IMG/VR virus record: IMGVR_UViG_3300022209_000007
Span: 1-34,964 of that record
Direction: 5' to 3' (one strand)
Length of the DNA stretch: 34,964 nt
Source of the DNA: a virus
This document shows positions 17,353 through 28,974 of the stretch, in pieces. Position 1 is the stretch's first letter. Every line of letters begins with the position of its first letter. The notes below the pieces were generated by a model. That model ran no database searches. It saw nothing but the letters and a program-made list of their open reading frames with translations, and had not been told where the DNA came from. Position numbers and translations under genes: made by a program.

Positions 17353-17380
17353 TTGACAATATTTAGTAAAGTGCTATTAT
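17353..17380 (+). promoter_or_regulatory. promoter of the guide-RNA (Tas) operon, inside an inverted repeat
   Basis: TTGACA (17353-17358), 16 bp, TGC-TATTAT (-10 at 17375-17380), then TTAAAAC. An exact 10-bp inverted repeat, AAAACCTTGA (17347-17356) and TCAAGGTTTT (17393-17402), brackets the core promoter and overlaps the -35. This could be an operator pair. The promoter serves the genes at 17429, 17728 and 18161 and then the repeat array. Confidence 0.78.
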
Positions 17381-17428
17381 TTAAAACAAGCCTCAAGGTT
17401 TTAATTTATATAGAAAGGAGAATTAAGG

Positions 17429-17740
17429 ATGTTAGATCAAAAAATTACTTGTGGAAAACACTCGTTTAAACTCGATGAGTTAGAAACGGCTGTAAAATTC
17501 GCGTTCGTTACTGAACTTGCATTGAAGATTGAAAACGTGATCGCTGCAAGCGGAACGTCTGACGGTTTGTGCTTCGGCGATCTTCAGGATCGCGGTCTTC
17601 TGAAAAAAAGATATATCCCCGGGAATGGACCGGATTACGATCCTTCCGGTATTGAATGGACAGTTGTCGGCGATGTGGAATTCACAACTGAGTGCGGCAA
17701 CACTTTCAAAAAGGGGGACGTGATCGAATGGGAAAAATAG
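17429..17740 (+). CDS. small hypothetical protein, first gene of the Tas operon
   Basis: The product is 103 residues with strong ribosome site AAAGGAGAATTAAGG. The N-terminal half is helical (LDELETAVKFAFVTELALKI); the C-terminal half is beta-rich (IEWTVVGDVEFTTECGNTFK) and could be a small barrel. No family is recognised. Its coding end overlaps the next gene by 13 bp. It shares the promoter of the Nop/IS110-like gene and array, so a link to the guide-RNA system is possible but unproven. Confidence 0.65.
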   Translation: MLDQKITCGKHSFKLDELETAVKFAFVTELALKIENVIAASGTSDGLCFGDLQDRGLLKKRYIPGNGPDYDPSGIEWTVVGDVEFTTECGNTFKKGDVIEWEK

Positions 17741-18120
17741 CCGATAGATTTTCAAAATCGAAAAGAAAAAAAGCAAAACGGACGGGGCATTGTTTTGTTA
17801 CCGCCGCAACAATGCAATCTAAACTTTTAACAGACTGGGAATTAGTTCATGGCATACCGCTGGGCAAGGGCGGGGAAGCGCAGGGTTTGCGCTATCCCCA
17901 CGCGTGGCTAGAATCCCCGGATGGGTTACAGGTATTCGATCCGAGCCTTTATGAAAAAGGAATCGAGCCGTTTTTTCCGTTGCGTAGTTATTACGAAATC
18001 GGAAATATAGAATGGACGGTTCGTTACCCGGTAGAGTCCGCCACGCGACTAATGCACGTGAGCGGGAATTTTGGTCCGTGGCATCAGAAGTTAATCGACC
18101 TTGACCGGGAGATCGGCTGA
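17728..18120 (+). CDS. possible papain-like/transglutaminase-fold protein
   Basis: The product is 130 residues from ATG 17728; an in-frame start further upstream would lie deep in the preceding gene. A very basic N-terminus (RFSKSKRKKAKR) precedes a candidate Cys-His-Asp triad in the order of papain-like and transglutaminase folds: Cys22 in GHCFVTAATM, His58 in YPHAWLE and Asp71 in VFDPS. The small size and spacing resemble uncharacterised phage proteins with this pattern. If active it could be a peptidase or amidase, but this is inferred from three short motifs. It is the second gene of the Tas operon. Confidence 0.55.
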   Translation: MGKIADRFSKSKRKKAKRTGHCFVTAATMQSKLLTDWELVHGIPLGKGGEAQGLRYPHAWLESPDGLQVFDPSLYEKGIEPFFPLRSYYEIGNIEWTVRYPVESATRLMHVSGNFGPWHQKLIDLDREIG

Positions 18121-18160
18121 CAGGTCGCGGACTTTTAAAAATCTGAAAGGAGAAATTAAA

Positions 18161-19021
18161 ATGAGTGAATTAAAAACTATGGTACGTGGTGTGTATGATC
18201 TTCAAAAATTACGCATTCAAATGGGAAACCGAATCGTCGGTAATTTTAAAGCAAAACTAGGGCAGGAACCTTCTCAACCCGAAGCCGAAATAGGGTCAGA
18301 AGGTGCTATGATTTTAAAATCGATGCGCGCTTCCTATGATAAGTTGATGGACGGGGTAAAAACTTTTCCGCGTCAAGCATCTTTTTCAGGTGACGAAATT
18401 ATCAGCAGTTACACGGAATTTTGTTTAATGGCGCAGTATGTTGAAATCGAAGAATCTGAAATTGCTGGTTTTCGACGGTTGAAAACAACCTTGCGGGAAT
18501 ATCCTATTTACAATAATTTTCTTGTAAATGTGAAGGGCGTCGGTCCGGCGATGGCGGGGGTTATTTTATCTGAATTCGATATAACCCGAGCAACTTACCC
18601 GTCGTCAATGTGGAAATATGCGGGTTTAGACGTTGCGTCGGATGGAAGGGGTCGGTCAAGACGGGCTGAACATTTAGTTGAAGTTGACTACAATGACAAG
18701 GACGGCAACCCGGCAAAACGTCGCGGCATTACGTTTAATCCGTGGTTGAAAACAAAATTGATCGGCGTTCTGGGGTCGTCTTTTCTGCGTGCTGGTGAAA
18801 ATCCTTATCGTGCTATTTACGATGACTACAAAAATCGTTTGGAAAATCATCCGGCTCATCAAGAAAAATCGAAAGGTCATCGGCATAATATGGCAATCCG
18901 ATACATGGTTAAACGGTTTTTAGTTGATCTTTATACAGAATGGCGCGCGCTGGAAGGCTTGCCGGTTGCAGATGAATACAGCATCGCGAAACTAGGCATT
19001 GATCATCGGAAAGCAGGTTGA
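18161..19021 (+). CDS. TIGR-associated (Tas) protein, nuclease-less, Nop/IS110-like
   Basis: The product is 286 residues from ATG 18161, with an ideal ribosome site (AAAGGAGAAATTAAA). The N-terminal 110 residues are predicted long helices (VYDLQKLRIQMGNRIVGNF), as in Nop-domain coiled coils. Residues 122-139 (VNVKGVGPAMAGVILSEF) form a helix-hairpin-helix followed by MWKYAGLDVASDGRGRSRR, the layout of the C-terminal domain of IS110 transposases (Tnp_20), which is structurally akin to Nop. A basic C-terminal helix follows (GHRHNMAIRYMVKRFLVDLY). The IS110 RuvC-like DEDD half is absent, and no HNH is seen. The repeat array starts 10 bp after the stop. It should bind array-derived RNAs and be guided to DNA; binding without cleavage is inferred. 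A lone transposase remnant is the alternative. Confidence 0.78.
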   Translation: MSELKTMVRGVYDLQKLRIQMGNRIVGNFKAKLGQEPSQPEAEIGSEGAMILKSMRASYDKLMDGVKTFPRQASFSGDEIISSYTEFCLMAQYVEIEESEIAGFRRLKTTLREYPIYNNFLVNVKGVGPAMAGVILSEFDITRATYPSSMWKYAGLDVASDGRGRSRRAEHLVEVDYNDKDGNPAKRRGITFNPWLKTKLIGVLGSSFLRAGENPYRAIYDDYKNRLENHPAHQEKSKGHRHNMAIRYMVKRFLVDLYTEWRALEGLPVADEYSIAKLGIDHRKAG

Positions 19022-19031
19022 TCGCGTGCAG

Positions 19032-20076
19032 AGTGAATCATGAAAGCCAAGAAACCCGTTTCAAGCTAGTGAACCGGAAGAAAAAAGAAACCCATTGGAT
19101 CGAAGTGAACCATGTAAGTAAAGGAAACCGCAGATAAATAGTGAATCAAAAAGCCGACGGAACCCGATGCCGCGTAGTGAATCAAGTGGGTAAAGAAACC
19201 CAACCCGGATAAGTGAACCAAATAGTGAAAGAAACCCGCTGATTTATAGTGAATCGATGACTGGAATAAACTCAGGCTGGCCGAGTGAATCAATATAAGG
19301 AAGAAACCCGGGAAAACGGAGTGAACCACCGCAGGAAAAGGAAACCGCTGATAATTAGTGAACCAAAAATTGAAAGAAACCCATACAGGCATAGTGAACC
19401 ATTGAATAGAAGAAACCCAGATTGACCAAGTGAATCAACGGCGAAAAGAAACCCGAACGAGACTAGTGAACCATTATATGTGAGAAACCCACCGGAAAAC
19501 AGTGAATCAACGGCGAAAAGAAACCCGAGCTAGGCTAGTTAATCAAAAACAAAAAGAAACCCAGACAGGCCGAGTGAACCAAGTGGGTAAAGAAACCCAA
19601 CCCGGATAAGTGAACCAAGCGGGGAAAGAAACCCATTGCAAGCTAGTGAACCAAGTTGTTGAAGAAACCCGCTTCAATTTAGTGAACCATTACATGAAAG
19701 AAACCCAAACTGACCAAGTGAACCAAACAGGGAAAGAAACCCAAACTGCCCAAGTGAATCACAAACAGAAAGAAACCCAGTCAGTCCGAGTGAACCATAA
19801 AACTAAAGGAACCCAGTGAAAACGAGTGAATCACAAGCAGAAAGAAACCCAGATAGGACGAGTGAACCATAGAACTAAAGGAACCCAGTGAAAACGAGTG
19901 AACCAACCGCGAAAAGAAACCCGTCTAAAGCTAGTGAATCGGAAACCGTGAGAAACCCATACTTACAAAGTGAACCAAGCGGGGAAAGAAACCCATACTA
20001 ACCAAGTGAACCATAAAGCGAAAGGAAACCAAACTTGCCTAGTGAACCAAGCCTACAAAGAAACCCAGTTAATCGG
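19032..20076 (+). repeat. TIGR array: 29 units of 36 bp with paired short spacers
   Basis: There are 29 head-to-tail units. 28 are exactly 36 bp; unit 9 (19320-19356) is 37. Each is AGTGAAYC, 10 bases (spacer A), RGAAACCC, 10 bases (spacer B). Box 1 deviates once (AGTTAATC at 19537) and box 2 in a few units, the worst being unit 7 (ATAAACTC). Spacer A nearly always starts and ends with A, and spacer B always starts with a purine, so the true variable cores are about 8-9 nt. A broken box (AGTGTAAT) closes the array at 20077. Period, two alternating boxes and two spacers per unit match TIGR arrays, which are processed to 36-nt tigRNAs. It should be transcribed with the gene at 18161. CRISPR does not fit: boxes are too short and spacers alternate. 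Confidence 0.88.
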
Positions 20077-20101
20077 AGTGTAATATTTTTTAAAAAAACG
20101 C

Positions 20102-20129
20102 TTGACTTCTGGTAAGGCTATGCTATTAT
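20102..20129 (+). promoter_or_regulatory. sigma70-like promoter with extended -10
   Basis: TTGACT (20102-20107), 16 bp, TGC-TATTAT (-10 at 20124-20129), then TTAAAAC. A T6A7 tract just upstream (20086-20098) may serve as an UP element and lies directly after the repeat array. It drives the DUF932 gene and is nearly the same as the promoter at 8147. Confidence 0.78.
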
Positions 20130-20209: not shown

Positions 20210-20968
20210 ATGTCAAACCTCAATCTTATGCTTCACTGTGGCGCGTCGCATGTTGATCGTTCGGAACTTGGAAAGGTAAACTTGCCGGTTGCGACTCGAA
20301 GCTTCGTCCCGGTCAATCACGATTACTTCGTCGATCTGGTTCAGGACAGGCTTGAAGATCGCGGTCTTCGGGTTCAATCCGAAGCCCACGGTCTGACAAA
20401 AGACGGGGCCAATTACTTCGGAATGTTCGAAGTTGTGGGTCGTGAATCGCGAGGCGATTACAGCACTGTGATCGGACTGCGGAACAGCCATGTAAAGGCT
20501 TTCGCTGCGATGATCGCAGTCGGTTCCGGGGTGTTCGTTTGCGACAACCTCGCTTTTTCTGGCGAAGTCGTTGTCGGTCACAAGCACACCAGAAACGTGC
20601 TTGAATATCTTCCCCTGCGAATTGCTGCCGCAATGGATCAGGTTATTCGCTTAGACGATCATCAAGAAATTCGTTATGATCGGTATAAGGAAACAGAATT
20701 CGGCGACAAGGATGCAGAATTCCATATCGTCGAACTGTTTCGCAAAGGCGCACTGAATACGCGGTCTTTGCCGAAAGTTGTTGAACAGTGGGACAATCCT
20801 GATCATCAGGAATTCGAAAACTCGAATGTCTGGAAGTTGTTCAACGCTTGCACTGAAGCATACAAAGGAACATCACTGGAATGGATTCAGCGGATGTCGG
20901 GTGAATTACATCGTCACCTTGATACGGTCTGCGAAGTTCCGGAACTTGTTCTTCCTGAAGCGGCGTAA
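20210..20968 (+). CDS. DUF932 family phage/plasmid protein
   Basis: The product is 252 residues with ribosome site AAAGGAGAATTAAATT. The core GLRNSHVKAFAAMIAVGSGV, then FVCDNLAFSGEVVVGHKHT, is the DUF932 signature, common in phages and plasmids but of unknown function. A C-terminal helical region (WKLFNACTEAYKGTS) precedes the end. It is a one-gene transcription unit with its own promoter, a possible attenuator, and a strong hairpin behind it, which suggests high, independently controlled expression. Whether it works with the adjacent Tas system is unknown. Confidence 0.8.
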   Translation: MSNLNLMLHCGASHVDRSELGKVNLPVATRSFVPVNHDYFVDLVQDRLEDRGLRVQSEAHGLTKDGANYFGMFEVVGRESRGDYSTVIGLRNSHVKAFAAMIAVGSGVFVCDNLAFSGEVVVGHKHTRNVLEYLPLRIAAAMDQVIRLDDHQEIRYDRYKETEFGDKDAEFHIVELFRKGALNTRSLPKVVEQWDNPDHQEFENSNVWKLFNACTEAYKGTSLEWIQRMSGELHRHLDTVCEVPELVLPEAA

Positions 20969-23134: not shown

Positions 23135-25122
23135 CCTACCCGCAGAACAGCGGTCTATTGTGGGACGCCCCTGCGCCGAAACGGGATGGTCTGCGCGTGA
23201 TGCCGAAAATACCGACGGATATTATATGGACCCCGCCGCAAGAATTCCCCCGGCTTGATTCTGCGAAGGAACTGGTGATCGATGTCGAAACGTATGATCC
23301 AGATTTGAAAACAAAAGGCCCGGGCGTTCGTCGCGATGGTTATATCGTCGGACTTGCCGTCGCGACAGAAGATCGATCATGGTATTTTCCCATGAATCAC
23401 GATCATCCCTACAAATACGATCCTAATAACTACAATATGCCGCGCGAAAAGGTTTTGAAATGGGCAAAGCGTGAACTATGCCGCCCCGGTATTCCGAAAA
23501 TCGGTGCGAATATTATTTATGATTTGGATTATCTTTGGCATGAAGGCGTTGAAATCCCGGGACCGTATTACGATATCTTGATCGCGGAACCTCTAATCGA
23601 CGAAAATCAATTCAAATTCTCGCTGGAATCGACCGCGAATAAATATCTGGGGGAAGGTAAAAAATCGGATCGTCTTTACGAATGGCTGGCAGCGGCTTAC
23701 GGCGGAAAGCCTACCCGGGGCGATCAGGCGAGAAACATTTGGCGCGCGCCGCCGGAACTGGTTGGGGAATATGCGCTAGGTGATGTCGAACTTCCCTGCC
23801 GAATCCTGCGCGAACAGCGCGATATTATAGGCAAGGAAGGACTAGACCGAGTATTCGATATTGAATCCCGGTTAACGCCGATGATGCTCGCCATGCGTCG
23901 CAGGGGCGTCCGTGTTGGTCTAGAAGCTGCAAACGCACTGGACGACGAACTATCGTGTGATGCAGACGAAATACGCGTCAAGCTGGACGCGTTAGGGATC
24001 AACCCACATGCGGGGGCAACGATCGCGGAATATTGTCGCGGCAAGAACATCGAACACGCTTACACAGCGGACGGGAACCCGTCCTTCGTGTCGCAATGGT
24101 TGGAAAGCCATGACGACGATGTCCTGCGATCGATTGCGATGATACGACATCTTGATAAGCATAAGGGCACGTTTATTCAAGGTGCAATACTGGGGAATCA
24201 AATCGCCGGACGGATTCATTGCCAGTTCAATCAGTTGAAAAGCGACGAATACGGAACTGTATCAGGACGCTTCAGTTCCAGTAACCCGAACCTTCAGAAT
24301 ATACCGGTTCGGACCGAACTGGGGCAGCGGATTCGTGAAATTTTCCTTCCGGACGACGGCGAAGAATGGCATAGCGACGACTGGTCGCAAATCGAATTCC
24401 GGATGCTTGTGCATTATGCGTATGCACAATATGGTCGTAATCCGCAAAGCCCGGCGGCACAAACCCGGCTTGCCTACCTTGAAGATTCTTCGACTGATTT
24501 TCATCAGGTTGTCGCAGAACTGACAGGCATTGACCGCAAGCCTGCAAAGAATATAAACTTCGGTCTGGTGTATGGAATGGGTGAACCGACGATGGCTAGA
24601 AATCTAGGTCGGTCACTGGAAGCTGTCAAACCGATGTTTGAGCAGTATCATTCCAGACTTCCGTTCATTCGTGATCTATACAACGAATGCAATGGTCGAG
24701 CCAGAAATAGAAAATGGATTAAGACCTATCTAGGGCGTCGACGCCGTTGGAATCGTTTTGAGTCGACCGACTGGGATCAATCCCGGGCACACGGGACAAT
24801 GTCCGAAGAAGCTGCAAAGTCTCGATACGGTAATAAGTACCGCCCGGCAAATACGCATAAGGCGCTGAACGCATTGCTGCAAGGTTCAGCGGCGGATATC
24901 ATGAAACTTGCAATGGTGAATATATGGGAAGCTGGTATTTGCGACGTATTAGGGGCACCGCTTCTAACCGTACACGACGAACTGAACTGGTCCGTCCCAA
25001 AGACGACGGAAGCGCAGAAAGCGCACAGCGAAGCGAAACGGATAATGGAAACCTGCGTGAAGCTGAACGTCCCGTTATTGTGCGACAGCAACCACGGGGG
25101 CAACTGGGGAGAAGCCAAGTAA
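23131..25122 (+). CDS. family A DNA polymerase with 3'-5' exonuclease
   Basis: The product is 663 residues from GTG 23131, which overlaps the clamp stop. The exonuclease domain has DVETYD (about residues 51-56), GANIIYDLDYLW and YALGDVE. The polymerase domain has motif A DDWSQIEFRMLVHYA, motif B RKPAKNINFGLVYGMG and motif C LLTVHDELNW. The O-helix Phe is kept, as in Pol I. There is no 5' nuclease domain, as usual for replicative phage Pol A. It should be the phage replicase, with a sliding clamp from the gene before and the AEP primase at 14225. All catalytic residues look intact. Confidence 0.93.
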   Translation: MTYPQNSGLLWDAPAPKRDGLRVMPKIPTDIIWTPPQEFPRLDSAKELVIDVETYDPDLKTKGPGVRRDGYIVGLAVATEDRSWYFPMNHDHPYKYDPNNYNMPREKVLKWAKRELCRPGIPKIGANIIYDLDYLWHEGVEIPGPYYDILIAEPLIDENQFKFSLESTANKYLGEGKKSDRLYEWLAAAYGGKPTRGDQARNIWRAPPELVGEYALGDVELPCRILREQRDIIGKEGLDRVFDIESRLTPMMLAMRRRGVRVGLEAANALDDELSCDADEIRVKLDALGINPHAGATIAEYCRGKNIEHAYTADGNPSFVSQWLESHDDDVLRSIAMIRHLDKHKGTFIQGAILGNQIAGRIHCQFNQLKSDEYGTVSGRFSSSNPNLQNIPVRTELGQRIREIFLPDDGEEWHSDDWSQIEFRMLVHYAYAQYGRNPQSPAAQTRLAYLEDSSTDFHQVVAELTGIDRKPAKNINFGLVYGMGEPTMARNLGRSLEAVKPMFEQYHSRLPFIRDLYNECNGRARNRKWIKTYLGRRRRWNRFESTDWDQSRAHGTMSEEAAKSRYGNKYRPANTHKALNALLQGSAADIMKLAMVNIWEAGICDVLGAPLLTVHDELNWSVPKTTEAQKAHSEAKRIMETCVKLNVPLLCDSNHGGNWGEAK

Positions 25123-25253
25123 ATGTTCCAAACAAAAATAGTTCAAAAACGGTTGTCGTTGGAAAAAGAAAACCGATCACCGCTAATCATCGCGCCGCAA
25201 ATGTCACGGGCGAAGAAATTCCACGACTATTTGAAGGAGAACGCGCTTTCGTT

Positions 25254-25844
25254 ATGGCGACGGGTCCTTCTTTGGACGACGCTGTTATTGATCGGATTTA
25301 TAATCTTACTGGTTGGCGTTATATCGGCATTTCTGATTGTTATCGTTGCTGTCCGTTTCTTGATTTCTTCTATGCTTGCGATCAACGCTGGTGGACAATA
25401 CACTATAAAAAAGTGATGGAGTGGGGAAATAGCCCGAATGGTTACTGGTGCACCGAAGCCACGACGAAACAAACTTATCCAGATTTGCATTTGATTAATG
25501 GGCGATCTGGTGCGGGCTGGTCGAAGGCGCAAAATCTGATTCATTACGGATCGAATAGCGGCTATCAGATAACGAACGTCGCTTATTTATTGGGCATAAA
25601 AACGATGATTTTGATCGGGTTTAATATGATGGTCGTCGACAAGAAGAAACATTTCTTCGGCGATCATCCGAAAGGATTGGCGCAGAATTCTTCGTATCAA
25701 TCGTTTGCACAGCAATTCAACACGATAAAACTTGATTCTTATGATGTAGATGTTATAAATGCATCACAACCGACCGCCTTGAAAGCTTTTCCACAAATGT
25801 CGCTTGAAGATGCGATCGAATTCGCGGATGTAAAACATGGATGA
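25254..25844 (+). CDS. DUF115/GT42-like protein, start uncertain
   Basis: From ATG 25254 the product is 196 residues, but the same frame reads like protein well upstream (GEEIPRLFEGERAFVMATGPSL) without any ATG, GTG or TTG back to the polymerase stop, so the true start is unclear. Motif ATGPSLDD at the start, then GISDCYRCCPFLDFFYACDQ, NSGYQITNVAYLLGIKTMIL and a HFFGDHPKG segment match DUF115 (Maf/MptE-like) and GT42-like glycosyltransferase-fold proteins. It is a paralogue of the gene at 26391. Substrate unknown; sugar transfer or a modified-nucleotide step is possible. Confidence 0.65.
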   Translation: MATGPSLDDAVIDRIYNLTGWRYIGISDCYRCCPFLDFFYACDQRWWTIHYKKVMEWGNSPNGYWCTEATTKQTYPDLHLINGRSGAGWSKAQNLIHYGSNSGYQITNVAYLLGIKTMILIGFNMMVVDKKKHFFGDHPKGLAQNSSYQSFAQQFNTIKLDSYDVDVINASQPTALKAFPQMSLEDAIEFADVKHG

Positions 25845-26394
25845 GAAAACGAAATATGAAAAAGTCTGGCGCGAGTGCGCGCGATACGGGAAGAACTGGA
25901 CCGACGCCGGGCTAGGTCGACCCTATAAAATACCATTTTTGAAACGCGCCCGGATCGGATCTTCTGTTATCGATTTCGGTTGCGGAAATGGTTCGTCGCT
26001 GGATTGGTTAAAAATGGAAGGCTTTTCCCCTTTCGGTGTCGACATAGCAAAAAACGCACTAACGAAAAAACGCGAAGATGTTGTTATAGGCGATTTGCGC
26101 GAACCCGGGTTGATAACTCAACCGGCAAAATACGGCATCTGCACGGATGTCATGGAGCATATACCGACTTCTGATGTTTCAATCGTTCTCGAAAATATTG
26201 CTGAAGTTATTCGTGAAGGTGTTCTATTTGGAATCGCACGCTTGCCGGATAAGGACGGCGACGAACTTGGTTTAAAATTGCATCTAACAATTAAGAATCA
26301 AGAATGGTGGGATGAACTTATCTTGCGGTATTTCAGAACTATTGAATTGATACGTTACGATGACGGCGTTTATATTTTATGGGCGATTAAATGA
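25837..26394 (+). CDS. class I SAM-dependent methyltransferase
   Basis: The product is 185 residues from ATG 25837, overlapping the previous stop. Motif I is VIDFGCGNGSSLDWL (about residues 44-58), the acidic residue after strand 2 is in GVDIAKNAL, and the post-motif region YGICTDVMEHIPTSDVSIVL is typical of small-molecule methyltransferases (methyltransferase 11/23 type). It lies between two DUF115-like genes, so methylation of a glycan or nucleotide precursor is the likely context. No target-recognition domain for DNA is present. Confidence 0.82.
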   Translation: MDEKTKYEKVWRECARYGKNWTDAGLGRPYKIPFLKRARIGSSVIDFGCGNGSSLDWLKMEGFSPFGVDIAKNALTKKREDVVIGDLREPGLITQPAKYGICTDVMEHIPTSDVSIVLENIAEVIREGVLFGIARLPDKDGDELGLKLHLTIKNQEWWDELILRYFRTIELIRYDDGVYILWAIK

Positions 26395-27020
26395 CAGAAA
26401 CAACCGAAGGCATTATTATCGGAACTGGTCCGTCACTGACAAAGGAACAACTTGACTGGGCAGCGGGTAAAAAGTACGGTTACGGCTGGAAGCTTTTCGG
26501 GATCAATAACGTTTACCAGCAAGTTAACGATCTTGATTGCTTCATGGCGTGCAATCCGGAATGGTGGGACGAATATTGCGCGGACCCCCGCCTTCGTGAT
26601 GCGCCTTACCCGAAATGGACATGGTCCGAACCGACGTGGAGAAAATATCGTGGCGTCATTAAAAACCTGCGTTATATCCGGGGGGTCTGGGCAGACTCAC
26701 TATCAAAAAATCCTAACTACTTGCATTATGGGCACGCTTCCGGGTATCAAATCATGGGCATTGCCTACCATGCCGGGATCAGAAATTTCTTTTTGTTGGG
26801 GTATGACATGGCGTATCCGCCCGGAGAAAAACGGCATTACTTCGGAGAGTACCCCGCAAGCCTTTACCATAACCCGAAGACAGGTCCGAACGGAGAATTC
26901 ACCGGACTTATTCGTCAATTCGAAACGATTGACGAAGCTGATCTCGGAATCCATGTTATCAACCTTTGCAAAAATTCTGCGTTAAACCATTTTGATAAAG
27001 GATCGATTTATGAATACTGA
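26391..27020 (+). CDS. DUF115/GT42-like protein, second copy
   Basis: The product is 209 residues from ATG 26391 (ATGA overlap). It shares with the gene at 25254 the elements GTGPSLTKEQ, GINNVYQQVNDLDCFMACNP, HASGYQIMGIAYHAGIRNFF, HYFGEYPASL and VINLCKNSAL. These match the DUF115-type and GT42-type Rossmann folds. Its intact N-terminus shows what the upstream paralogue should look like: only 9 residues precede GTGPSL. Probably part of the same pathway as its neighbours. The substrate cannot be predicted. Confidence 0.72.
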   Translation: MTETTEGIIIGTGPSLTKEQLDWAAGKKYGYGWKLFGINNVYQQVNDLDCFMACNPEWWDEYCADPRLRDAPYPKWTWSEPTWRKYRGVIKNLRYIRGVWADSLSKNPNYLHYGHASGYQIMGIAYHAGIRNFFLLGYDMAYPPGEKRHYFGEYPASLYHNPKTGPNGEFTGLIRQFETIDEADLGIHVINLCKNSALNHFDKGSIYEY

Positions 27021-27738
27021 TTATGAAGCACAAACAACTTATATAGAATTCAACGGGCGGCGCTGGAAATGGCCGAAGTTCGACGAAAAGCTGTTGCAGG
27101 TTAATGACTGGGTTAACGATCTAAACGCTGCGCTTCTGGAAATGGCTAAAGCCGATCGAGATTGCGGAATTGTGATTCAAGCTGGCGGGGCGTGCGGTGT
27201 TTGGCCTGTCGCGATGGCGGAACATTTCGATATGGTATTCACGTTCGAACCCGATCTTTTAAATTACTGGTGTTTGTCGGCGAACGTGTCGCACTTACCG
27301 ACGAAAATTTTCCCGGCTAATTTTGCGCTTGGCGAGCGACCGGGGCAGGTTGCAACCGCAGTCGACAAAAGCGAGTCCATGAACTGCGGCGCATATTACA
27401 CGGTCGACATTAAGGAAGCCCCGCGAAATGCTGTTTTGGTTCCACGGATAACGATCGATTCGCTGAACATGGCGGGCTGTGATCTGATCTGTCTAGATAT
27501 CGAGGGGCGAGAAGTTGAAGCCTTACGTGGCGCGCAGCGGACGATCGAAGAATTCCAGCCTTTCATTATGATCGAAGAAAAACCGCTTCCGCACATGGGC
27601 AAGGGTAAGCCGGTTGAACACACGAAGGGAGAAGCTACGGAATGGCTTCAAAAAATTCACGGCTACCGAATTGTCCGCGAGGTTCATCGGGATATCGTTC
27701 TGGCTCCGCCGGAACCGAAACCAGTGATAGAAGAATGA
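27010..27738 (+). CDS. FkbM-family methyltransferase
   Basis: The product is 242 residues from ATG 27010, chosen because AAAGGA lies 7 bp upstream; an in-frame TTG at 26992 lacks one. The SAM-binding part begins GIVIQAGGACGVWPVAMAEH, and FTFEPDLLNYWCLSANV follows. The signature DLICLDIEGREVEALRGAQR is characteristic of FkbM/Methyltransf_21 enzymes, which O-methylate sugars and other small molecules. It overlaps the DUF115-like gene by 11 bp. Together with the next glycosyltransferase gene it points to modification of a glycan. Confidence 0.85.
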   Translation: MNTDYEAQTTYIEFNGRRWKWPKFDEKLLQVNDWVNDLNAALLEMAKADRDCGIVIQAGGACGVWPVAMAEHFDMVFTFEPDLLNYWCLSANVSHLPTKIFPANFALGERPGQVATAVDKSESMNCGAYYTVDIKEAPRNAVLVPRITIDSLNMAGCDLICLDIEGREVEALRGAQRTIEEFQPFIMIEEKPLPHMGKGKPVEHTKGEATEWLQKIHGYRIVREVHRDIVLAPPEPKPVIEE

Positions 27739-28460
27739 ACATCGATTTAACGACGCCGCCAATCGCACCGACACGCTGGACTATCACGCGCGAAAAAGTC
27801 GAGGAACCTTTAATTGTCGTTTGCGTTTGTTACGGAACGAAATATTCAGATGATTACGTTCACCGGTTAAAAAATGCGGTCAGTAAAAACTTGCCAATTG
27901 ACCACGGATTCGTTTGTTTATCGGATAGGGAAATTTCCGGGGTTCCTACAATACCGCTTCCGAAACTGGATAGACGCGCGGAAGGCTGGTGGCAAAAAAT
28001 AAATTTGTTTTGGCCGGGCCTTTTTCCGGATGGGGCAAGGATTTTATACTTCGATCTGGATGTCGTTATTACCGGGGATTTATCAGTTCTGGCAATGCAG
28101 TGGGCAGCGGACCCGCTGGCAATGATTTTCAATTTCGGTCCGAACCGTCCGCATTGCGCACACAATTCAAGCGTCATGCTGTGGTCTGCTAACGACGAAC
28201 GGCTGCATTCGATCTGGCTGGAATACCAGCGAAACGCGGACAAGATCATGAAAGCCCTTCACGGGGATCAGTGCTGGATATGGCGTGTTCTACGTGATGA
28301 CGTTGCGAATTTCCCGCGTGAATATATCCTATCCTATAAATACGATTGCCGGGGGAAAAACGTTGACCCGCAAGCGCGGGTCATTGTCTTTCATGGCGAT
28401 CCGAAGCCGGACCAATGTCGCGAACCGTGGGTCCGCGAACACTGGCACAATTTACTTTAA
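27735..28460 (+). CDS. GT-A glycosyltransferase-like protein
   Basis: The product is 241 residues from ATG 27735 (ATGA overlap). Strand 1 is EEPLIVVCVCYGTKYSDDYV; the metal-binding DxD is in ILYFDLDVVITGDL; later GDQCWIW and VIVFHGDPKPD correspond to acceptor and donor elements of GT8/GT32-like folds. A metal-dependent sugar transfer using a nucleotide-sugar donor is expected. It ends the clamp/polymerase operon and converges, with a 4-bp overlap, on the minus-strand gene at 28457. Confidence 0.78.
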   Translation: MNIDLTTPPIAPTRWTITREKVEEPLIVVCVCYGTKYSDDYVHRLKNAVSKNLPIDHGFVCLSDREISGVPTIPLPKLDRRAEGWWQKINLFWPGLFPDGARILYFDLDVVITGDLSVLAMQWAADPLAMIFNFGPNRPHCAHNSSVMLWSANDERLHSIWLEYQRNADKIMKALHGDQCWIWRVLRDDVANFPREYILSYKYDCRGKNVDPQARVIVFHGDPKPDQCREPWVREHWHNLL

Positions 28461-28681
28461 GCTGCGTAATGCAATACCGCAGCGTTAACCATTTCCGAAT
28501 CGAAGTCGATGCGAACTTCTTCTTCCAGCTTTGCGATCGCGTCGTCGGTCAATGATTCGATTTCGATTTCTGCGCCGGTAACTGCACAATATACGAAAGT
28601 GGTTGCTATGCTAACATCGCCGAATCGATCGGGTTCATATTCGACACGAACGATTTTGCTATCCAGTGCTGTAGTAAACAT
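28457..28681 (-). CDS. small acidic hypothetical protein
   Basis: The product is 74 residues. Two in-frame ATGs lie 6 bp apart; the inner one at 28681 is 8 bp from AGAAAGGAG, whereas the outer one at 28687 is only 2 bp from it, so 28681 is preferred. The sequence is strongly acidic at its end (TDDAIAKLEEEVRIDFDSEM) with a beta-rich start (IVRVEYEPDRFGDVSIATTF). No family is recognised. It follows the gene at 28711 in one minus-strand unit. A small acidic early protein such as this might mimic DNA or inhibit a host protein; that is inference. Confidence 0.7.
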   Translation of the reverse strand: MFTTALDSKIVRVEYEPDRFGDVSIATTFVYCAVTGAEIEIESLTDDAIAKLEEEVRIDFDSEMVNAAVLHYAA

Positions 28682-28710
28682 TTTCATTTCTCCTTTCTAA
28701 ATTGTGGGGC

Positions 28711-28920
28711 CTATCGGCCCCGGTTTAAGTAATATCCGCGTTCGGCGCGGTAGTCGCGGGCTTCGTCGCAGCAGCCAGTATAAACACTGCGATCGATTCC
28801 GTTCCTGTCGTGGCGTCCGTCCTTAAAATTTTGCGGAAGCCGTTGACTGCGGAAATATTTAAAAGCTTCAACGGGGGTTCCGATAAAACAACCGTGTTCG
28901 TCAAATTTGGGTTCGTTCAT
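28711..28920 (-). CDS. small hypothetical protein
   Basis: The product is 69 residues from ATG 28920, with AGGAGAAAGGAAA directly upstream. An in-frame ATG at 28938 would place the ribosome site inside the coding sequence and is rejected. The sequence is charged, with many Arg, Asp and Tyr (GTPVEAFKYFRSQRLPQNFK, then CCDEARDYRAERGYYLNRGR). No family is recognised. It is the first gene after the minus-strand promoter at 28946-28974. Confidence 0.65.
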   Translation of the reverse strand: MNEPKFDEHGCFIGTPVEAFKYFRSQRLPQNFKDGRHDRNGIDRSVYTGCCDEARDYRAERGYYLNRGR

Positions 28921-28945
28921 TTTCCTTTCTCCTTTCATGTTTTAA

Positions 28946-28974
28946 ATAATAGCAACTATTACCGGAATTGTCAA
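28946..28974 (-). promoter_or_regulatory. sigma70-like promoter for the minus-strand pair
   Basis: On the minus strand, TTGACA (28969-28974), 17 bp, TGC-TATTAT (-10 at 28946-28951), then TTAAAAC. Same design as the promoters at 17353 and 20102. It drives 28920 and 28681, and is back to back with the plus-strand promoter at 29017. Confidence 0.8.

What the first reader, a model, noticed from the sequence alone, without database searches (positions are those of the whole stretch)
17353..20077. TIGR-Tas-type RNA-guided system in a phage early operon
Seen: a gene for a 286-residue helix-hairpin-helix/IS110-C-terminal-like protein, then after 10 bp a 29-unit array with period 36 bp (28 of 29 exact). 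Each unit has two 8-bp conserved boxes alternating with two 10-bp variable segments. Known (from memory of the 2025 description of TIGR-Tas): a Tas protein with a Nop domain sits beside an array processed to 36-nt tigRNAs that carry two spacers, related to box C/D RNPs and IS110. Inference: this is a nuclease-less Tas with guides co-transcribed from 17353. What it targets, and whether it silences rivals, the host or its own genes, is unknown.
Basis: partly seen in the sequence, partly recalled or inferred. Interest (0 to 1): 0.96.

Follow-up and report, generated by a model that had tools for sequence, protein, structure and literature searches.

The report
Phage RNA-guided TIGR-TasA system with array
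A phage carries a genuine TIGR-Tas system, a recently described RNA-guided DNA-binding protein without a nuclease beside an array of 29 two-part guide sequences; the kind is known, but close relatives show the guides are reshuffled very fast as intact pairs, which suggests an arms race.

Summary
The observation and the core interpretation hold. Window 18161-19021 encodes a 286-aa Tas protein: it passes NCBI's curated TIGR_Tas model (126 bits, cut-off 100), matches TasR and TasH by sequence, and its AlphaFold2 model aligns along its length to the Nop part of TasH and TasR (Z about 20) but not to their nuclease domains. It is therefore a TasA. Ten bases downstream lie 29 units (28 of 36 bp, one of 37), best read as 9-nt edge, 9-nt spacer A, 9-nt loop, 9-nt spacer B. 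Nearly all complete relatives in IMG/VR have the same arrangement, and so does the cultured Microcystis phage Mvi-JY20. This is a new member of a system published in 2025. Beyond that: in sister phages with 98-99.5% identical tasA, arrays share only part of their units, in changed order. Spacers A and B stay together across the loop far more often than B and the next A across the edge (31:0 discordant cases; 9:0 in jumbo phages). The heritable guide is thus one edge-A-loop-B unit, and repertoires turn over quickly. No self-target was found. Natural targets remain unproven; one weak lead points to a conserved motif in a rival phage's replication helicase.

The parts
17353..17380 (+). promoter-like site TTGACA-16-TATTAT with extended -10, upstream of the TIGR cassette
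   Evidence: 11 of 12 consensus, best in region; function inferred
17429..17740 (+). small ORF, 103 aa, unknown function, in the same apparent operon
   Evidence: no Pfam family; no relative at the other TIGR loci held, so probably not part of the system
17728..18120 (+). small ORF, 130 aa (ATG start), unknown function, in the same apparent operon
   Evidence: no family; no relative at the other TIGR loci held
18161..19021 (+). tasA: 286-aa solo Nop-domain Tas protein, no nuclease domain
   Evidence: NF052498 126 bits over cut-off 100; TasR 9mty E=2e-12, profile 3.5e-22; AF2 pLDDT 86.6, Z 19.9 TasH, 19.8 TasR
19032..20080 (+). TIGR dual-repeat array, 29 units: edge AGTGAAYCA, 9-nt spacer A, loop AGAAACCCR, 9-nt spacer B; ends with truncated edge AGTG (20077-20080)
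20102..20129 (+). promoter-like site TTGACT-16-TATTAT just after the array, for the next gene (DUF932-like ORF at 20210)
   Evidence: the Microcystis phage Mvi-JY20 cassette is likewise bracketed by two promoter-like copies

Best explanation
This is a TIGR-TasA locus. Shown here: a nuclease-less Nop-domain Tas protein with a 29-unit dual-repeat array, in a single-strand cassette between two promoter-like sites. Inferred from the published system: the array is transcribed with tasA, cut within edge repeats into tigRNAs of about 36 nt, and a TasA dimer carries one tigRNA whose spacers A and B pair with opposite strands of adjacent 9-bp half-sites (target = A + 0-2 bp + reverse complement of B). 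Having no nuclease, it would act by binding, unwinding and sharply bending DNA, blocking transcription or replication. The most likely use is against DNA other than its own, rival mobile elements or the host, because no self-target was found and related arrays turn over fast while the effector barely changes.
For: Protein. Array. Conserved pairing of protein and array in relatives; a search with the array motif alone independently returned loci encoding Tas. Unit register: in sister arrays A-loop-B is kept in 45 of 53 comparisons and B-edge-A in 14, discordant cases 31:0 (sign test 9e-10); in jumbo-phage arrays 13 and 4 of 14, 9:0. Fast turnover: tasA genes 97.7-99.5% identical at DNA level but units only partly shared and reordered. 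No self-target up to 2 mismatches in the own contig. Mechanism of the system: PMC12045711.
Against: No RNA or binding data exist for this locus. The published study saw no block of phage plating or conjugation by TasR in E. coli, only plasmid loss. No target is established: guides of all arrays do not match the sequence held here more than shuffled pairs do, once hits fetched with the guides themselves are set aside, and the guides tested had no exact target in 50,697 phage records. No convincing terminator follows the array.
Confidence: 0.88

Rival explanations
1. A TIGR-TasA system that regulates the phage's own genes (timing, or lytic-lysogenic choice).
For: Nuclease-less TasA is suited to repression; the cassette sits in the replication module.
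Against: No 18-bp self-match up to 2 mismatches and no excess at 3-4; none above chance in the relatives' records held; fast unit turnover between near-identical phages is unlike guides fixed on own genes. The window contig is incomplete, so part of the genome was not searched.
Confidence: 0.07
2. A TasA that helps integration, segregation or packaging by bending DNA at guide-chosen sites, as the discoverers suggested, rather than by antagonism.
For: TasR bends target DNA by about 180 degrees and some TasA genes sit with ParB-like genes (PMC12045711).
Against: No integrase or ParB among the window genes scanned; fast guide turnover does not fit a fixed attachment site.
Confidence: 0.07
3. A decayed IS110 transposase beside an unrelated tandem repeat.
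For: Weak Pfam match to the IS110 C-terminal domain; PHROG label 'transposase'.
Against: IS110 NCBIfam score 14.7 against a cut-off of 140, TIGR-Tas 126 against 100; intact gene; conserved association with the array across many phages.
Confidence: 0.01

Closest known systems
TIGR-TasA (dual-repeat type), e.g. Flavonifractor plautii FpTIGR (PMC12045711)
   Same: solo Nop-domain protein, no nuclease; dual-repeat array with 9-nt spacers and 36-nt units next to the gene
   Different: 29 units against the usual 5-15; repeats AGTGAAYCA/AGAAACCCR; full first edge repeat; promoter-like sites at both ends
TasR of Thermoproteota archaeon (PDB 9mty) and TasH of Salicola phage CGphi29 (PDB 9w04, 9vzx)
   Same: Nop domain, 24-28% identity in structural alignment, Z about 20
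   Different: they carry N-terminal RuvC or HNH nuclease domains, which this protein lacks
Microcystis phage Mvi-JY20 (PP438412), 241-aa protein XAI95461, annotated hypothetical
   Same: NF052498 193 bits; 9-unit dual-repeat array; bracketed by two copies of one promoter-like sequence
   Different: cultured phage with known host; repeats ATGCGAGCC/ACGAAACCC; terminator present; only 31.8% identical over 62% of the query
IS110 family (IS621, PDB 8wt6)
   Same: related RNA-binding C-terminal region, Z 13.5
   Different: no DEDD/RuvC domain here; array of guides instead of one bridge RNA
Box C/D snoRNP Nop5 (PDB 3pla)
   Same: Nop fold, Z 7.5; repeats with C-like CCA ends
   Different: a Z this low could be common helical arrangement alone; no fibrillarin-recruiting domain

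Membership tests
TIGR-Tas | Tas protein with a Nop domain | tested here: met
   NF052498 126.1 bits over cut-off 100; 9mty and 21kl by sequence; Z about 20
TIGR-Tas | adjacent array of two alternating 8-12-nt repeats separated by about 9-nt spacers | tested here: met
   29 units, 9+9+9+9; shuffles at most 2
TIGR-Tas | edge and loop repeats share covarying box D and box C motifs | tested here: met
   both repeats begin AG and end CC[AG] here; in relatives they change together. The UG box D reported for TasR is not at that position
TIGR-Tas | truncated edge repeats at array ends and a terminator (typical, not defining) | tested here: inconclusive
   3' truncated edge AGTG present; first edge is full; no terminator-like site directly after the array on the + strand
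TIGR-Tas | processing into 36-nt tigRNAs | not testable with these tools
   only indirect support: A and B co-inherited across the loop and separated at the edge in relatives
TIGR-Tas | tandem-spacer RNA-guided DNA binding | not testable with these tools
   needs biochemistry
TasA subtype | no HNH or RuvC nuclease domain | tested here: met
   model aligns only to TasR 111-317 and TasH 68-300; helices only in residues 1-170; no nuclease in Pfam
IS110 RNA-guided transposase | full-length IS110 family match including the N-terminal DEDD domain | tested here: not met
   NF033542 14.7 bits against cut-off 140

The most novel reading that the evidence does not exclude
TIGR-TasA arrays are fast-evolving guide repertoires, reassorted as whole A+B units, aimed at conserved replication genes of rival phages, above all the LRGHS[SA]L motif of RepA-like AAA_25 helicases. 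The most shared sister unit matches this motif exactly in two phage contigs, and a jumbo-phage array holds a different guide encoding the same motif.
Probability: 0.3. Interest if true: 0.85.

Novelty: new member of a known kind. Interest (0 to 1): 0.5.

Why it matters
The natural targets and role of nuclease-less TasA, and how TIGR arrays grow and change, are stated open questions of the 2025 paper. The comparison made here shows that arrays change fast while tasA does not, that the inherited unit is edge-A-loop-B, and that a cultured phage with a known host (Mvi-JY20) carries the same kind of cassette, so the role can be tested by infection.

Tried and rejected
Self-targeting in the own contig: nothing at 0-2 mismatches and no excess at 3-4. 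All 468 guides of all arrays against 1.95 Mb of phage DNA: no excess over shuffled A/B pairs. The later count on 3.2 Mb is raised by loci fetched with the guides themselves.

Exact scans of IMG/VR. Widely shared sister guide (8 variants): 2 contigs, one gene. Second shared sister guide (4 variants): 2 unrelated genes. Window guide of units 5 and 16 (gaps 0-2): 3 contigs in 2 unrelated genes, all with a 1-bp gap. Jumbo-phage guide: none. One hit therefore means little by itself.

Codon-like variation of guides: the window's guide families looked like codon variants by eye, but differences between related guides show no 3-base periodicity; rejected as a general rule.

Exact targets in INPHARED for guides of the sister and jumbo groups, Mvi-JY20, Morrissey, Barriga and Scowl: none; an 18-mer positive control was found.

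L035 guide exact in L006 and L020 just after their arrays: AT-rich, not pursued. Close relatives of the window's DNA polymerase: only two at 32%. Rfam: nothing. PADLOC: nothing.

Full report
WHAT WAS CLAIMED. A phage early operon with a Nop/IS110-like gene followed by a 36-bp-period array, read as a nuclease-less TIGR-Tas system.

THE SEQUENCE. The array is real: 29 units from 19032, 28 of them 36 bp and unit 9 of 37 bp, ending in a truncated edge at 20077-20080. Box pairs 18 bp apart number 28 in the array, at most 2 in 200 dinucleotide shuffles, and 1 in the rest of the contig. Columns 1-9 (AGTGAAYCA) and 19-27 (AGAAACCCR) are conserved; columns 10-18 and 28-36 vary, though the last bases of spacer A are mostly A. 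The gene 18161-19021 stops 10 bp before the array. Promoter-like sites at 17353 and 20102 are the best in the stretch. The two small ORFs between the first promoter and tasA have no relatives at the other TIGR loci held, so the module is probably tasA plus array only.

THE PROTEIN. It passes NCBI's TIGR_Tas model (126.1 bits, cut-off 100), while the IS110 model scores 14.7 against 140. It matches TasR 9mty (E=2e-12) and TasH 21kl (2.4e-6) by sequence, and more strongly as a profile of 20 relatives. The AlphaFold2 model (pLDDT 86.6) matches TasH (Z 19.9, 2.7 A over 216 residues) and TasR (Z 19.8, 2.0 A over 194), then IS621 and ISCro4 (Z about 13.5), then Nop5/Nop56/58/Prp31 (Z about 7; weak for a helical protein). 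The aligned parts are TasR 111-317 and TasH 68-300, so the N-terminal RuvC or HNH domain is missing. By the published definitions this is a TasA.

THE VIRUS. The window is a whole IMG/VR record of 34,964 bases with no near relative in INPHARED. Tail, endolysin, helicase, primase, polymerase, clamp and ThyX genes mark a tailed phage. A second contig (L141) is 99.93% identical over 18,573 bp, breaks inside tasA, and extends beyond the window's left end, so the window is not a complete genome.

RELATIVES. 28 IMG/VR loci encode relatives at 36-99% identity, and nearly all that reach beyond the gene carry a 36-bp-period array beside it. A search with the edge/loop pattern alone returned further loci that encode Tas. 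Nine metagenome-assembled bacterial contigs carry relatives. Among cultured phages, Microcystis phage Mvi-JY20 carries a 241-aa Tas and nine dual-repeat units, with two copies of one promoter-like sequence bracketing the cassette. Gordonia, Rhodococcus and mycobacteriophages carry Tas relatives next to inverted-repeat hairpins with CCA motifs, like the published stem-loop arrays.

HOW ARRAYS EVOLVE. In the sister family (L003, L004, L006-L009, L020, L029) tasA is 97.7-99.5% identical where complete, yet arrays share between none and about two thirds of their units, in altered order. L003 and L004 share the last eight units and none at the tasA-proximal end in register. If A and B act together on one RNA, recombination that parts them should be selected against. 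For spacers A shared between arrays, B of the same unit is kept in 45 of 53 distinct comparisons and the preceding B across the edge in 14; discordant cases are 31 to 0. In jumbo-phage arrays the figures are 13 and 4 of 14, discordant 9 to 0. These comparisons share ancestry, so the p-values are rough. The result is sequence-only support for the published register, in which tigRNAs run from mid-edge to mid-edge, and for guide repertoires that turn over much faster than their effector.

TARGETS. The reported 8-nt 3' overhangs imply a target A + rc(B) on one strand, and 0-2 bp gaps are tolerated. There is no self-match and no general excess in held phage DNA. One lead: the most widely shared sister guide (TAGAGGTCA/AGCGAACTA) matches exactly two IMG/VR contigs, both in the codons for LRGHSSL of an AAA_25 (RepA-like) replication helicase, a motif invariant in 79 homologues. 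Three of four variants of this guide are synonymous there (by my count about 6% by chance). One target contig comes from a sample whose number neighbours those of L009 and L020. Two jumbo phages carry an unrelated guide encoding RGHSA, the same motif, on the other strand. Against this, single exact hits occur at chance rates, guide variation shows no codon periodicity overall, the jumbo guide has no exact match, and INPHARED holds no exact target for any guide tested, with a working positive control. I give it about 0.3.

VERDICT. The system type was described in 2025 (PMC12045711) and is now in NCBIfam, so this is a new member of a known kind. What is new is comparative: unit-wise inheritance and fast turnover of guides, and a cultured dual-repeat example for experiments.

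Noticed in passing
L266:2090-2450, L270:2086-2447, L267:1985-2445, L268:2070-2360: Cultured mycobacteriophages Scowl and Barriga, Rhodococcus phage Peregrin and Gordonia phage Morrissey have Tas relatives annotated hypothetical, transposase or DNA-binding, each preceded by a series of hairpins with about 30-40-nt loops holding CCA/CGAAACCCA motifs, like stem-loop TIGR arrays. 76 mycobacteriophage records match the Mvi-JY20 Tas.
   Followed up: partly
L265:2269-3440: Microcystis phage Mvi-JY20: Tas gene, 9-unit array and terminator bracketed by two identical copies of the 35-bp promoter-like sequence TTGACTTTTGACGTGTCTTGATGGTAAGGTTGAGA.
   Followed up: partly
L021:9962-11227, L022, L024, L026, L019, L027: Jumbo and other large phages carry longer Tas proteins (406-452 aa) with two insertions of about 45-55 residues in the C-terminal half; modelled with strands and helices, no Pfam match.
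   Followed up: partly
L006:1638, L020:933: A guide of the TIGR phage L035 matches exactly the stretch between the array and the next gene, a probable DNA adenine methyltransferase, in two sister TIGR phages; AT-rich, may be chance.
   Followed up: partly
window 24924-28460: Cluster of sialyltransferase-like, methyltransferase and glycosyltransferase genes (phrog_4603 twice, phrog_8156, phrog_1962) in a tailed phage.
   Followed up: no
window 28946-28974 (-): Another promoter-like site TTGACA-17-TATTAT with extended -10, on the minus strand, facing the minus-strand ORFs at 28457-28938.
   Followed up: no
window 19753-19896: Units 21-24 are a tandem duplication of two units in which one spacer B differs at 4 of 9 positions while the repeats are unchanged.
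   Followed up: no
L256:8001-8864: Selenomonadales MAG contig: Tas frame contains one TAA stop, either a broken gene or recoding.
   Followed up: no
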